From the NCBI RefSeq assembly GCF_000209165.1, contig NC_009068.1:3224001-3288000 (forward strand): DNA of 64,000 nucleotides. Reading direction: 5' to 3'. The notes under the pieces were generated by a model. That model saw only the letters and a program-made list of their open reading frames with translations. It did not search any database and was not told the DNA's origin. Origin of the DNA: Scheffersomyces stipitis CBS 6054 (Eukaryota > Ascomycota > Pichiomycetes > Serinales > Debaryomycetaceae). Shown here piece by piece: positions 16,500-26,420 of the stretch; the first letter of the stretch is position 1, and every line of letters begins with the position of its first letter. The translations under genes were made by a program, and so were the position numbers.

Positions 16500-17435
16500 T
16501 CAGACAAATTCAGCTTGCAGGGTGGGCTTACTGTCATCTGCATTGTATGTAACAGTAAGAGCAATATCTTCTCTTTCGACATTCTTGAATTGCATCTCAG
16601 TTTGGGATAACATCATGGGAGTATAAAAGCTCAATAAAGTAAGAGCGGCGAATGTGATAAAAAGACTATCGAGAAGAAAGAGGTACTCTTCTGACGACAT
16701 TAGCTTTCCGTCTCTTCCTTCAACAAATTCAAGTAAACGATAAATTGATCTAGCAAAGATTAACAAGGAAGCTATAACCAACAGCAAAAGATGTACCTTC
16801 CAGTTGTTCATATACCTGCTCAAGGAACTTGACAAGTTTGCCAACTTAGTAGGGTAACGGGAGCACTTAAGGAAGAAGAGTACGACGCAGACCATAAAGC
16901 AACCAAAGAAAATGAGCTGCACTGTCAAGCCTCCAATGACAAGTTTTTCACCGAAATCTGCTTTAGAACTCAGAGCCATCAATCCTCCTCCACCACTCTG
17001 CAAAAGTAACGAAAGGATATCGCCTGCCACAAAGATCTTAGTGAGCTTCGTTATTGGGATAATTGAAAGATGGCTTGCGTCTAAGGTTTTAACGATCTCT
17101 CCGAAAAGCATATAAATGGAAGCAGCCATGAATGTCGGACCAAGTAACAAACAGAGAGACTGAAGGATATACGCACCCAAATTTTGTGGGTCAGAATGGC
17201 CCATTGCTCTTCCTATATAGCCAATACATTCCATAGCCAAGCCAATTGTAAAAGGAATCATAACACCTAGGTATCTATTCAGTTTTTGTTTTGACAAATA
17301 CTTGTTGTATTTTATTTTTACAAAAATCATTAGACCGATCAGAACCGAAAGTAGAAGAGCATATTTGCCAGCCTGTACTAGGTTTACCCAAAGCAGAGGG
17401 GTGTAGTTGTAAAGTTTCCATTCGTTGGTAGACAT
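16500..17435 (-). CDS. RTA1-family seven-helix membrane protein (copy 1)
   Basis: The 311-aa protein has about seven hydrophobic helices and the RTA1 signature block: a Pro-Phe-(T/S)-I-G-x-A-x-E segment in TM3, and GPTFMAASIYMLFGEIVKTLD (split about 112-132) followed by an FVAGD..SLLLQ motif. The family includes yeast Rta1, Rsb1 (sphingoid-base export) and Candida Rta2/Rta3, linked to lipid translocation and azole or aminocholesterol tolerance. The substrate cannot be read from sequence. It lies in tandem with a paralogue, same strand, 367 bp apart. The two share the core helices closely and diverge in loops and C-terminal tail, so they arose by local duplication. Confidence 0.88.
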   Translation of the reverse strand: MSTNEWKLYNYTPLLWVNLVQAGKYALLLSVLIGLMIFVKIKYNKYLSKQKLNRYLGVMIPFTIGLAMECIGYIGRAMGHSDPQNLGAYILQSLCLLLGPTFMAASIYMLFGEIVKTLDASHLSIIPITKLTKIFVAGDILSLLLQSGGGGLMALSSKADFGEKLVIGGLTVQLIFFGCFMVCVVLFFLKCSRYPTKLANLSSSLSRYMNNWKVHLLLLVIASLLIFARSIYRLLEFVEGRDGKLMSSEEYLFLLDSLFITFAALTLLSFYTPMMLSQTEMQFKNVEREDIALTVTYNADDSKPTLQAEFV

Positions 17436-17802: not shown

Positions 17803-18720
17803 TTATACAGATACAGGCTCTGTTTCAGGAACGGAAAACTTCTGATCTGTCCGAATAGTGCTTGATTTCATGTTTTCCTTTTCTGTGTAACATAACATAC
17901 TGGGGGTGTAAAATACAATCATGTGAAGTGCTGCCAGAGCAACGAGATGGCTGTCTAGTAAGAAGAGATACTTCTCATCTGAAATAAGGATTCCATTGGC
18001 ACCTTGCAAGAACTCAATAACCCTATAGACAGATCTTCCAAGAATGAGTAGCGAGGCTACGACCAACAGAATGACGTGGATTTTCCAATTTTGAATAATG
18101 CTCGAACGAGCAGAATTCATGGCAGCACTCTTGGTTGGGGAATTGGAGCATTTAACATAGAACAGCAAAACACAGAGAACAAAAACGCCAAAAAAGATCA
18201 ATTGAACAAACAAGCCTCCTAGAATTATCTTTTCGCCTATATTGTAGAGCATCTTCAGGTCATTAGTGGTGAGGGAGCCACCTGTGCTCTGTAATGTCAA
18301 CGATAATAAATCTCCACCAACGAATATCTTGGTGAGTTTCGCAATTGGAACAACTGAATGATGGCTCGCATCTAAGGTCTTCACGATTTCTCCAAACAGC
18401 ATGTAAATCGTTGCTGCCATGAACGTAGGTCCAAGAAGTATGCAAACAGCTTGAATAATAAATCCTGCTAAAGATTGCAAATCGTAATGGTTAATGATTC
18501 TTCCAGCGAAGCCTACAACTTCGAGAGCCATTCCAATTGAAAATGGAATCATCATGAGATGGAACCTTTTGAGTTTAGTCTTCCCCAAGCTGGAAGAGTA
18601 CTTTGTATGGAGATGCCAGCTGTAAAGGACTTGAACGGCCAAGAAGACTGCAAACACTGCTGCGAATTGAATATTCACTGAAAGCATGGGAATGTAATTG
18701 AAAGCTTTCCACTCATCCAT
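17803..18720 (-). CDS. RTA1-family seven-helix membrane protein (copy 2)
   Basis: 305 aa, same topology and signature as its downstream neighbour: MIPFSIGMALEVVGF, then GPTFMAATIYMLFGEIVKTLDASHHS, FVGGDLLSLTLQSTGG, and a conserved WKIHVILLVVASLLILGRS..YRVIEF segment in the sixth helix region. The short cytosolic tail is Ser/Thr/Glu-rich. A lipid-related exporter or receptor-like role at the plasma membrane is inferred from the family. The start is the ATG at 18718-18720. Confidence 0.88.
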   Translation of the reverse strand: MDEWKAFNYIPMLSVNIQFAAVFAVFLAVQVLYSWHLHTKYSSSLGKTKLKRFHLMMIPFSIGMALEVVGFAGRIINHYDLQSLAGFIIQAVCILLGPTFMAATIYMLFGEIVKTLDASHHSVVPIAKLTKIFVGGDLLSLTLQSTGGSLTTNDLKMLYNIGEKIILGGLFVQLIFFGVFVLCVLLFYVKCSNSPTKSAAMNSARSSIIQNWKIHVILLVVASLLILGRSVYRVIEFLQGANGILISDEKYLFLLDSHLVALAALHMIVFYTPSMLCYTEKENMKSSTIRTDQKFSVPETEPVSV

Positions 18721-19975: not shown

Positions 19976-21502
19976 TTAAGCATCATAAGTAGAGGCAGAC
20001 ACGTTACCACCCTTACCGGTCCAGTTGACGTGGATCCAGTCACCCTTAAGGAAGTCGTTTTCCTTACCTGGCAAGACCTTGAAGGTGTGGGCACCAAAGT
20101 AGTCTCTTTGGGCTTGCAACAAGTTAGCAGGCAACATGGCCGATCTGTAACCATCGTAGAAGGACAAAGCGGTGGTGAAAGCTGGAACTGGAACACCGTA
20201 CTGAACAGCCTTAGCAATGGATGATCTCCAGCCGGATTGGGCCTTGGTGATGGCATTCTTGAAGAATGGGTGGAACAACAAGTTTTCCAAGTCTGGGTTT
20301 TCCTTGTAGGCAGCGGTGATTTCTCCCAAGAAAACAGATCTGATGATACAACCACCTCTCCACATCAAGGCGATAGCAGGGTTGTTCAATTTCCAGCCGT
20401 ATTCCTTAGCGGCTTCGTTGATCAACATGAAACCTTGAGCGTAGGAGATGATCTTGGAGGCGTACAAGGCTTGTTCCAAGTCGTCAACGAACTGCTTTCT
20501 GTCGGTGATTGGGGATTCACCGGAAACAGTTGGACCTTCCAAGACAGTAGAAGCTCTAACTCTTTCATCCTTCAAGGCAGAAAGACATCTGGAGAAGACA
20601 GCTTCACCAATCAAAGTAACTGGCATACCCAAGTCAAGGGCGTTGATGGCAGTCCACTTACCAGTACCCTTTTGACCAGCAGAATCCAAGATCTTTTCCA
20701 ACAAAGGAGTGCCGTCGGTAGGGTCGTTGAAGTAAAGAATGTCTCTGGTGATTTCAATCAAGAAGGAGTCCAAAACACCCTTGTTCCATTGAGTGAAGAC
20801 ATCACCGATTTCCTTGTCGGTGAACTTACCAACTCTCTTTAACAAGTCATAGGCTTCACAGATCAATTGCATGTCACCGTATTCGATACCGTTGTGGACC
20901 ATCTTGACGTAATGACCGGAACCGGCATCACCAACCCAGTCACAACATGGCTCACCGTCGGACTTGGCGGCGATGGACTGGAAGATGTCCTTGATGTGTG
21001 GCCAAGCGTCCTTGTGACCACCAGGCATCAAAGAAGGACCGTTACGGGCACCTTCTTCACCACCAGAGACACCGGAACCGACGAAGAGAATACCCTTGTC
21101 GTTCAATTCTTCGTAACGACGGTTGGAATCTGGGAAGTGCGAGTTACCACCGTCAATGATGATGTCACCCTTTTCCAAGTGTGGCAACAATTGCTCAATG
21201 AAGGCGTCAACAGGCTTACCGGCCTTGACCAACAAGATGATTCTTCTTGGTCTCTTCAAGTTGGCAACCAATTCTTCGATGGAACGGGCACCGATAATGG
21301 ACTTGCCCTTGGCTTCGTTAGCAAGGAACTCATCGACCTTGGCCACGGTTCTGTTGTAGGCAACAACAGTGAAGCCGTGGTCGGCAGCATTGAGGATCAA
21401 GTTTTGACCCATGACGGCCAAACCGATCAAACCGATATCACCACTGGGAAGAGTGTTAGTAGGACTGAGATGGGCTGAAAGCTGTGCGAGTCTAGCGGTC
21501 AT
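19976..21502 (-). CDS. GND1: GND1 alternative isoform with N-terminal PTS2 (peroxisomal)
   Basis: An ATG inside the intron (21502-21500) is in frame with exon 2 and extends the enzyme to 508 aa with an N-terminus beginning MTARLAQLSAHLSPTNTL. Residues 4-12, R-L-(x5)-H-L, are a textbook PTS2 peroxisome-import nonapeptide. The codons are CTC and CTT, not CTG, so the leucines stand in the CTG-Ser code. The enzyme core is unchanged. The isoform needs a transcript in which the 583-nt intron is not removed. The TATA-like ATATAAAAG about 120 bp upstream of this ATG suggests an internal start site, since such an RNA would lack the donor. Dual cytosol/peroxisome targeting of Gnd1 by alternative splicing is known in C. 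albicans. Confidence 0.75.
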   Translation of the reverse strand: MTARLAQLSAHLSPTNTLPSGDIGLIGLAVMGQNLILNAADHGFTVVAYNRTVAKVDEFLANEAKGKSIIGARSIEELVANLKRPRRIILLVKAGKPVDAFIEQLLPHLEKGDIIIDGGNSHFPDSNRRYEELNDKGILFVGSGVSGGEEGARNGPSLMPGGHKDAWPHIKDIFQSIAAKSDGEPCCDWVGDAGSGHYVKMVHNGIEYGDMQLICEAYDLLKRVGKFTDKEIGDVFTQWNKGVLDSFLIEITRDILYFNDPTDGTPLLEKILDSAGQKGTGKWTAINALDLGMPVTLIGEAVFSRCLSALKDERVRASTVLEGPTVSGESPITDRKQFVDDLEQALYASKIISYAQGFMLINEAAKEYGWKLNNPAIALMWRGGCIIRSVFLGEITAAYKENPDLENLLFHPFFKNAITKAQSGWRSSIAKAVQYGVPVPAFTTALSFYDGYRSAMLPANLLQAQRDYFGAHTFKVLPGKENDFLKGDWIHVNWTGKGGNVSASTYDA

Positions 21503-22040
21503 ATCGAATGTCTAGGGAAATTCTGGAAACGACAGCAAATTTGATCGTGCTGTGGAGAATAGTAGTTTCGACGGAGCAAGAACTAATGTAGTGGATGTGT
21601 CAAATATAATGTGGGTTGATCTTTTATATGAAAACGACAATTCTGATTATCATATGGGGATCCACTGAAAAATCCGGAGTGAAAAATTCAACGAAAAATT
21701 CCAGCCAGAACTTTTCAATGACAAATGGATTCTCCAACAATAACGACCAAGTTCTTCAACGAGCTCAATGTTCTATGATAGCTATTATACTGGCGATAGC
21801 AGACGACAGAGAGCTTTTATAAGAAAAGGAACAACGCTGAAACTACCTTTGTCCGAAACCTGGAGCCTCGGATGGCAGTGCAACGAATACTCGGAAAAAC
21901 CCCGCCACGGGAAATTGACCCATGGATAAGCCAGAGTGATTGATATAAAAGCCAGACTAAGGGCAATTGGGCAGGAGATGATGGCCGCTAGACCGAATTG
22001 GATCGACGTGTAAAGCTTATACGTACGTAGGAGCAGACAT
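19976..22040 (-). CDS. GND1: GND1, 6-phosphogluconate dehydrogenase (cytosolic, spliced form)
   Basis: Decarboxylating dehydrogenase of the oxidative pentose phosphate pathway: 6-phosphogluconate + NADP+ gives ribulose-5-phosphate + CO2 + NADPH. Exon 1 is 22040-22027 (ATG TCT GCT CCT AC) and exon 2 is 21443-19976. Joining them gives M-S-A-P-T-G-D-I-G-L-I-G-L-A-V-M-G in frame, 493 aa, matching the family's usual length (S. cerevisiae Gnd1 489 aa) and N-terminus. The N-terminal NADP-binding GLAVMG motif, the IIDGGNSHFPDSNRR catalytic segment and the C-terminal all-helical domain are intact. A TATA-like run on the minus strand (22113-22120) lies about 75 bp before the exon-1 ATG. An alternative 5' end is described separately. 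Confidence 0.93.
21444..22026 (-). other. GND1: GND1 intron (583 nt) containing an alternative first exon
   Basis: On the minus strand the donor is GTACGT (22026-22021), the branch point is a perfect TACTAAC (21461-21455) and the acceptor is CCCAG ending at 21444, 12 nt after the branch adenosine. The branch point and acceptor lie inside the N-terminal coding extension of the alternative isoform. A TATA-like ATATAAAAG (21629-21621) sits inside the intron. Confidence 0.88.
21621..21629 (-). promoter_or_regulatory. GND1: Intronic TATA-like element before the PTS2 isoform ATG
   Basis: ATATAAAAG on the minus strand, 119-127 bp upstream of the internal ATG. This is a usual TATA distance for yeast if the leader is short. 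It supports, but does not prove, an alternative promoter. Confidence 0.45.

Positions 22041-26420
<4,380 letters not shown>

What the first reader, a model, noticed from the sequence alone, without database searches (positions are those of the whole stretch)
19976..22040. GND1 encodes cytosolic and peroxisomal enzyme from alternative 5' ends, with the splice acceptor inside the PTS2 extension
Seen: exon 1 (ATG TCT GCT CCT AC) with donor GTACGT at 22026, branch TACTAAC at 21461-21455, acceptor ending at 21444; joined in frame this gives the canonical Gnd1 N-terminus. Also seen: an in-frame internal ATG at 21502 adding R-L-x5-H-L, a perfect PTS2. The branch point and CCCAG are themselves codons of that extension, so splicing necessarily deletes the peroxisomal signal. 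Known: C. albicans Gnd1 is dually targeted through alternative splicing. Inference: here an intronic TATA (21629-21621) may drive the peroxisomal form, because splicing exon 1 to nearby alternative acceptors (TTTCCAG, CCTAG) would hit stops.
Basis: partly seen in the sequence, partly recalled or inferred. Interest (0 to 1): 0.85.

Follow-up and report, generated by a model that had tools for sequence, protein, structure and literature searches.

The report
Enzyme gene hiding a peroxisome tag
A yeast sugar-pathway gene can make two versions of one enzyme, one without and one with a peroxisome address tag, because the tag is written inside an intron; this is already described for a relative, but the layout is kept across distant yeasts and here the tagged version probably starts from its own promoter inside the intron.

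Summary
GND1 (6-phosphogluconate dehydrogenase) has a 14-nt first coding exon, a 583-nt intron and one large exon. Splicing gives 493 aa without a peroxisomal signal. An ATG inside the intron (21502) opens 508 aa with a full PTS2, RLAQLSAHL; branch site and acceptor are codons of that leader.

It is not chance. Of the 120 best relatives, 50 have a leader longer than 8 aa; 41 of these 50 keep the branch-site codons (Thr-Asn) and all 41 have Ser/Arg (AGN, the acceptor) at the junction. Of 40 distinct such leaders 31 hold a broad PTS2, against 0.6 expected by shuffling. They occur around the window's clade and in Wickerhamomyces.

Peroxisomal Gnd1 through a cryptic PTS2 is known from Candida albicans, attributed to alternative splicing. 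Here an intron-internal start fits better: no acceptor joins exon 1 in frame to an intact PTS2, retention puts three AUGs ahead, and the intron has a TATA box 126 nt before the ATG plus one CCTCGG-type site (weak alone). A predicted zipper stem uses the PTS2 start codon as its 3' arm. No transcript data were available, so the mechanism is inference.

The parts
22027..22040 (-). Exon 1, ATGTCTGCTCCTAC (MSAP + 2 bases)
   Evidence: a like exon plus donor is suggested by the leader MSAPTYV of relative P0019
22113..22118 (-). TTTATA, possible TATA element of the exon-1 promoter, 78 nt before ATG 22040
21444..22026 (-). 583-nt intron: donor GTACGT 22026-22021, TACTAAC 21461-21455, CCCAG ending 21444
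21981..21993 (-). 5' arm of a predicted zipper stem, 33 nt after the start of the intron
21866..21871 (-). CCGAGG (reverse complement of CCTCGG), 369 nt before ATG 21502; Far/Ctf1-type fatty-acid response motif
   Evidence: motif meaning from passages of PMC5068947
21622..21628 (-). TATAAAA, candidate TATA box of an intron-internal promoter, 126 nt before ATG 21502
21512..21514 (-). In-frame TAG just upstream, fixing ATG 21502 as the earliest possible AUG start of the long form
21490..21502 (-). ATGACCGCTAGAC: start codon and codons T-A-R of the peroxisomal form, and also the 3' arm of the predicted zipper stem
21467..21493 (-). PTS2 codons, R-L-A-Q-L-S-A-H-L
21455..21461 (-). Branch site TACTAAC, read as (CC)T-ACT-AAC = P-T-N in the long form
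   Evidence: Thr-Asn present in 41 of 50 long leaders
21444..21448 (-). Acceptor CCCAG; its AG starts the Ser codon AGT of the long form
   Evidence: Ser/Arg in 41 of 41 Thr-Asn leaders
19976..21443 (-). Exon 2, enzyme core (NAD_binding_2 and 6PGD domains)

Best explanation
One GND1 gene makes two enzymes through alternative first exons. (a) Transcription from the upstream promoter includes exon 1 and the donor; the intron is spliced out and the cytosolic 493-aa enzyme is made. (b) A second promoter inside the intron (TATA at 21628) makes an mRNA starting between about 21600 and 21503. It lacks the donor, so it cannot be spliced; its first AUG is 21502, so it keeps the branch site and acceptor as codons and makes the 508-aa enzyme with a PTS2, imported by Pex7 to supply NADPH during fatty-acid oxidation. 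Shown here: both open frames, the complete PTS2 motif, the overlap of splice signals with codons, and joint conservation (in relatives' proteins) of PTS2, branch codons and acceptor codon. Inferred: the intronic start, its control by fatty acids, actual import, and any splicing role of the stem.
For: Frames and signals. Conservation: of 120 relatives, 23 do not show the start of the core, 47 have a leader of 8 aa or fewer, 50 a longer one; 41 of the 50 have Thr-Asn 2-5 residues before the core, and 41 of these 41 have Ser/Arg next to the core (these two make up 9.5% of core residues); the residue before Thr-Asn is never K, Q, E, M or W (0 of 41; their codons cannot end in T as TACTAAC needs; P 1.7e-4 if rows were independent, which they are not); 31 of 40 distinct leaders have a broad PTS2 (0.59 expected, at most 4 in 2000 shuffles), 16 of 40 the usual consensus (0.26 expected). 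By my count on the tree, 34 of the 41 lie in the window's 50-row clade (support 97), 6 in a 7-row clade with Wickerhamomyces (99), 1 elsewhere (P0073). Against splicing as the source: the in-frame TAG at 21514 bars any acceptor upstream of it from reading into the PTS2 frame; of the 20 AGs tried (beyond the first 200 nt of the intron) only 21492, 21465 and 21444 give an open frame from exon 1 and none keeps R-L-x5-H-L; retention meets ATGs at 22040, 21923 and 21653 first. Promoter: TATA at -126, as in the POT1-like gene (-126) and near those of the FOX2-like gene (-138, -125, -123); CCTCGG/CCGAGG in 5 of 6 chosen peroxisomal promoters against 8 of 68 background genes, 0 upstream of the ZWF1-like gene and of two SOL-like genes, 1 in the GND1 intron, 0 in 600 nt above exon 1. 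Precedent: C. albicans SKI7/HBS1 starts an mRNA inside its intron, by 5' RACE (PMC3597508, section 9 read).
Against: No RNA or protein data for this species were available. C. albicans Gnd1, the studied ortholog, is reported to use alternative splicing (passages of citing papers; the primary paper was not held). One CCTCGG-type site is found in about 1 promoter in 8 here, and TATAWAW occurs 0.68 times per kb per strand, so the promoter evidence is weak. The peroxisomal gene set was my choice; one of the two acyl-CoA oxidase genes has no site, and counting two further thiolase genes without sites gives 5 of 8. The background upstream stretches were cut at neighbouring frames, the chosen ones were not. 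One relative (P0019) has a leader readable in frame from what looks like exon 1 through a short intron, so retention could serve there. 9 of the 41 Thr-Asn leaders lack the broad PTS2.
Confidence: 0.62

Rival explanations
1. Alternative splicing or retention in exon-1 transcripts makes the PTS2 form, as reported for C. albicans: retention, or use of the 21512 acceptor, with translation reaching AUG 21502 by leaky scanning or by reinitiation after the 8-codon uORF MSAPTHSI, whose TGA overlaps AUG 21502.
For: The ortholog is reported to be alternatively spliced (passages). The 21512 junction puts uORF stop and PTS2 start in an ATGA overlap. In P0019 the leader reads in frame from exon-1-like residues.
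Against: Three AUGs precede 21502 on a retained transcript; no acceptor yields an in-frame PTS2 from exon 1; the only TACTAAC lies downstream of the PTS2, so an acceptor at 21512 would lack a good branch site.
Confidence: 0.28
2. The long frame is a chance open stretch of intron and only the spliced cytosolic enzyme is made.
For: An open ATG frame of some kind arises in 18% of shuffles; 9 of the 41 Thr-Asn leaders lack the broad PTS2.
Against: PTS2 enrichment of 31 of 40 against 0.59 expected; a functional peroxisomal form is reported in C. albicans (passages).
Confidence: 0.05
3. The leader is primarily RNA: conserved residues reflect the branch site, acceptor and a splicing stem, and peroxisomal import is minor.
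For: The start codon and Arg codon lie in a predicted 12-bp stem between the donor and branch regions.
Against: The Arg-Leu-x5-His-Leu part lies mostly outside the splice signals yet is enriched in relatives; similar motifs precede the same core in Umbelopsis and Jimgerdemannia proteins, whose gene structure I did not see.
Confidence: 0.05

Closest known systems
Candida albicans GND1 dual targeting (Strijbis et al. 2012; primary paper not held, seen only through passages of citing papers)
   Same: Same gene; a PTS2 form and a cytosolic form from one gene. A database protein named C. albicans has the leader MKNFNALSRLSILSKQLSFNNTNSSIAR in front of GDIGLIG (P0036).
   Different: Reported mechanism is alternative splicing. 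Here no acceptor joins exon 1 to an intact PTS2, and an intron-internal start is the better fit. I could not check the C. albicans intron DNA.
Candida albicans SKI7/HBS1 alternative first exons (PMC3597508, section 9 read)
   Same: Intron-containing gene in the CTG clade; the second mRNA begins inside the intron just before an internal AUG, so it keeps codons that splicing removes.
   Different: Different gene and purpose (two functions, not two compartments); 5' end proven by RACE there, not here.
Ustilago maydis pgd1 (PMC7214817, parts 1 and 2 of 5 read)
   Same: Same enzyme; a cryptic PTS2 (RISSLAAQL) encoded upstream of the cytosolic start.
   Different: Reached by non-AUG initiation in the 5' UTR; no AUG and no alternative splicing found there.
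Zipper stems of yeast introns (PMC12350175, passages; PMC12311795, start of abstract)
   Different: Here the 3' arm is also the start codon of a second isoform; prediction only, without probing data. The paper also reports a zipper stem whose disruption lowered intron retention, so such stems need not promote splicing.

Membership tests
6-phosphogluconate dehydrogenase (Gnd1) | NAD_binding_2 and 6PGD domains over cut-off | tested here: met
   173 and 430 bits against cut-offs 21 and 27
PTS2 cargo | N-terminal (R/K)-(L/V/I)-x5-(H/Q)-(L/A) | tested here: met
   RLAQLSAHL at residues 4-12 of the long form
PTS2 cargo | Pex7-dependent import into peroxisomes | not testable with these tools
   PTS2 use in this genome is suggested by its POT1-like thiolase, MDRLQQLSGQL; PEX7 itself was not searched for
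Dual targeting of GND1 by intron-encoded PTS2 (C. albicans type) | Cytosolic form by splicing; PTS2 encoded within the intron and lost on splicing | tested here: met
Dual targeting of GND1 by alternative splicing | A splice choice from a common first exon yields the PTS2 form | tested here: inconclusive
   No acceptor gives an in-frame intact PTS2, but retention with reinitiation cannot be excluded without RNA
Alternative first exons (SKI7/HBS1 type) | A transcript 5' end inside the intron, upstream of the internal AUG | not testable with these tools
   Needs 5' RACE; only the TATA and motif context are seen
Zipper-stem intron | Stem of at least 6 bp, linkers totalling 42-85 nt, at least 10 nt from 5'SS and at least 20 nt from branch | tested here: met
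   By position: 12 pairs, 33 + 28 nt. As many pairs in 74 of 2000 shuffles; stem probability 0.28-0.95 and absent from the best fold in 3 of 7 flank choices, so formation itself is not settled

The most novel reading that the evidence does not exclude
The intron of GND1 is a second, fatty-acid-responsive promoter and 5' leader, and the same 13 bases do three jobs: start codon and PTS2 arginine of the peroxisomal enzyme, zipper-stem arm that promotes splicing in exon-1 transcripts, and thereby a lock on peroxisomal translation from those transcripts. Transcripts born in the intron lack the other arm and the donor, so they are unspliced by design. The PTS2 leader itself would be an old fungal N-terminus of the enzyme (a similar leader precedes the core in Umbelopsis and Jimgerdemannia, and in the U. 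maydis 5' UTR), which yeasts later enclosed in an intron.
Probability: 0.2. Interest if true: 0.7.

Novelty: new member of a known kind. Interest (0 to 1): 0.5.

Why it matters
A 2013 paper counted the GND1 event among those described only in one genus (PMC3597508, passage). The protein data here show the layout in two separate clades of budding yeasts, with splice signals and targeting signal locked into the same codons. It offers a clean test of whether compartment choice is set by promoter choice rather than by splicing regulation, and suggests that reports of alternative splicing of GND1 in relatives should be checked by 5' end mapping. If the deep leader is homologous, fungi have repeatedly changed the gate on one old peroxisomal signal.

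Tried and rejected
Chance open frame: rejected on conservation. In-frame alternative acceptors ending 21492 and 21465: open, but the first replaces the PTS2 Arg by Thr and the second removes the motif. AGs in the first 200 nt of the intron were not tried one by one; the in-frame stop at 21514 bars them from the PTS2 frame. So conservation was tested on proteins only, and TATA, CCGAGG and the stem could not be tested in relatives. A fully peroxisomal oxidative pathway: the ZWF1-like protein ends in GKI and the two SOL-like proteins in SKY and CNS, none a standard PTS1 (standard recalled), so this was not claimed. Opening of the PTS2 AUG in intron-born mRNA: not supported, since the first two bases of the AUG are paired (unpaired probability 0.01 or less) for all nine assumed 5' ends, 21590 to 21510, and for 21600. 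Deep homology of the leader: suggestive only. Of 108 further proteins brought in by the Jimgerdemannia query, 3 (all Umbelopsis) have a broad PTS2 directly before the core, and one more (P0221) has a match elsewhere in a long leader. Of the 95 new proteins from the leader search I looked at 30 (P0121-P0150): 1, Jimgerdemannia, has a broad PTS2; Aspergillus-type leaders (RLAGI...) and the chytrid leader lack the His/Gln.

Full report
What is there. The window is 64 kb of contig 1 of a 15.44-Mb, 8-contig genome. Size and contig number fit Scheffersomyces stipitis; that name is my recall. The nearest named relatives are Candida railenensis, Spathaspora and Yamadazyma, which by recall are Serinales like Scheffersomyces (lineage of the latter). 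The gene on the minus strand, 22040-19976, encodes 6-phosphogluconate dehydrogenase and is the only strong match in the genome; a second is weak, 30% identity at E 2.7e-4. A 14-nt exon is followed by a 583-nt intron with one donor-pattern match, one TACTAAC and the acceptor at 21444. Splicing gives MSAPTGDIGLIG..., 493 aa. An ATG at 21502, inside the intron and preceded by an in-frame stop at 21514, opens 508 aa beginning MTARLAQLSAHLSPTNTLPSGDIGLIG. RLAQLSAHL is a full PTS2 by both printed consensus forms.

Is it more than chance? Relatives were retrieved from a protein collection (7999 scored, best 120 listed and used). By the position of the core motif, 23 do not show the start of the core, 47 have a leader of 8 aa or fewer (spliced-type), and 50 have a longer one. 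In 41 of the 50, Thr-Asn (ACT-AAC of TACTAAC) sits 2 to 5 residues before the core, and in all 41 the last leader residue is Ser or Arg, whose AGN codons can hold the acceptor AG. In the 47 short leaders 8 are Ser or Arg, the rest Thr, Lys, Val, Gln or Ala. A sharper test: TACTAAC in that frame needs a preceding codon ending in T, so K, Q, E, M and W are forbidden before Thr-Asn; they occur 0 of 41 times although they make up 19% of core residues. Of 40 distinct leaders, 31 contain a broad PTS2 (0.59 expected from shuffling each leader, never more than 4 in 2000 shuffles) and 16 the usual consensus (0.26 expected). Of the nine Thr-Asn rows without a broad PTS2, P0016, P0019, P0057, P0058 and P0064 are near misses by my reading and four lack it. 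The codons themselves were not seen: relatives were read as proteins only. A tree of the cores (118 relatives and the window; midpoint root for drawing) has a 50-row clade with the window (support 97) and a separate 7-row clade (99) holding both Wickerhamomyces entries. By my count 34 of the 41 Thr-Asn rows fall in the first, 6 in the second and 1 (P0073) elsewhere. Wickerhamomyces ciferrii belongs to Phaffomycetales, Scheffersomyces to Serinales. The rows are related, so shuffle figures are guides rather than probabilities. For one species, Yamadazyma tenuis, the database holds both forms under separate entries with identical cores (P0015 long, P0018 short).

How the long form is made. Any acceptor upstream of 21514 is barred from the PTS2 frame by the stop there. 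If the intron is retained, ribosomes meet ATGs at 22040, 21923 and 21653 first. The only TACTAAC lies downstream of the PTS2, so it cannot serve an acceptor upstream of it. An mRNA starting inside the intron solves all of this: it has no donor, hence cannot be spliced, and its first AUG is 21502. The intron has TATAAAA 126 nt before that AUG, the same distance as in this genome's POT1-like gene, whose protein starts MDRLQQLSGQL, itself a PTS2. The Far/Ctf1 motif CCTCGG (meaning from passages of PMC5068947) occurs within 500 nt upstream of 5 of 6 peroxisomal genes that I chose (POT1-like 3 sites, a second thiolase 3, two acyl-CoA oxidases 2 and 0, FOX2-like 1, catalase 1; gene names and peroxisomal assignment by Pfam match and recall) and of 8 of 68 background genes, the GND1 long frame itself being left out of the 69 (Fisher P 4e-4). 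Background stretches were cut at neighbouring frames, the chosen ones were not. Two more thiolase genes had none, making 5 of 8 if counted. The GND1 intron has one such site, while 600 nt above exon 1 have none and the ZWF1-like gene has none. One site in the intron could be chance at about 1 in 8. A published precedent exists: C. albicans SKI7/HBS1 starts a second mRNA within its intron immediately before an internal AUG (section read).

An unexpected feature. The intron holds a 13-nt inverted repeat (12 of 13) between 21993-21981, 33 nt after the 5' splice site, and 21502-21490, 28 nt before the branch site. This position satisfies the published definition of a zipper stem (passages of PMC12350175; the same paper reports one zipper stem that did not promote splicing). 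It is present in both the minimum-energy and centroid folds of the intron alone; the intron fold has z -1.93, with 7 of 100 shuffles as stable. With exon flanks the stem's probability ranges from 0.28 to 0.95 and it is absent from the best fold in 3 of 7 choices. Under the published limits, 74 of 2000 shuffles do as well; a search of the first and last 80 nt, chosen after the fact, gave 3 of 1000. The 3' arm is exactly the start codon, the T-A-R codons and one more base of the peroxisomal form. If real, splicing and hiding of the peroxisomal start would be one act. However, in mRNAs with assumed intronic 5' ends the first two bases of the AUG are still predicted to be paired locally, so a simple 'unlocking' is not supported.

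Known or new. Dual targeting of Gnd1 by a cryptic PTS2 in C. albicans is established in the literature, as alternative splicing (passages; the primary paper of Strijbis et al. 2012 was not held). One paper counts that event among those described only in one genus (passage), another says 'C. albicans and related ascomycetes' (read). Among the papers listed by searches for GND1 or the enzyme with intron, peroxisome, start-site or clade terms, no title or abstract start points to an intronic promoter of GND1 or to dual targeting of Gnd1 in S. stipitis; most were seen as listings only, and subscription journals are mostly not in that library. I therefore file it as a new member of a known kind, with an untested variant mechanism.

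Deeper origin. Leaders with a PTS2 directly before the same core also appear in Jimgerdemannia (RLSNFARHL) and three Umbelopsis proteins (RLHTLSRHI, RLHNLSRHI, RLHHLSRHI, broad consensus only), both Mucoromycota, and U. maydis has RISSLAAQL in its 5' UTR. These are 3 of 108 new proteins and 1 of 30 looked at. A 13-sequence alignment picked for this purpose keeps the Arg in all rows. Short motifs can arise repeatedly; common descent is possible but not shown.

Noticed in passing
P0019 (protein): Leader MSAPTYVRAQQIYQQLDTNKGR before GDIG: it looks like exon 1 and donor (as in the window) read straight through a very short intron in frame, giving a near-PTS2 RAQQIYQQL. In that unnamed yeast, plain intron retention could make the second form.
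   Followed up: partly
P0096 (protein): A leader without branch codons...NINRLNLLHLQLNMSNTQADIGLIG, a PTS2 directly before what looks like the cytosolic start Met; suggests choice between two in-frame AUGs without any intron.
   Followed up: no
P0216, P0218, P0222, P0122: Mucoromycota Gnd proteins with a PTS2 leader; entries named for other Umbelopsis species or strains (P0277, P0279, P0284; 485 aa) have no such leader, which may reflect separate copies, species differences or gene models.
   Followed up: partly
window 21490-21502 with 21981-21993: 13-nt inverted repeat at zipper-stem distances whose 3' arm is the PTS2 start codon.
   Followed up: yes
window 21500-21512: Exon 1 spliced to the acceptor ending 21512 would give an 8-codon uORF whose TGA overlaps the PTS2 ATG (ATGA).
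   Followed up: partly
window 16500-17435 and 17803-18720 (-): Tandem pair of RTA1-family proteins (Pfam PF04479).
   Followed up: no
window 24849-26420 (+): ATP sulfurylase (MET3-like by recall), on the other strand upstream of GND1.
   Followed up: no
L039 (G000:C7, ZWF1-like); L040 (G000:C2) and L010 (G000:C5), SOL-like: The other oxidative pentose-phosphate enzymes end in GKI, SKY and CNS and lack CCTCGG sites in the stretches read, so how they would reach peroxisomes in this yeast is open.
   Followed up: partly
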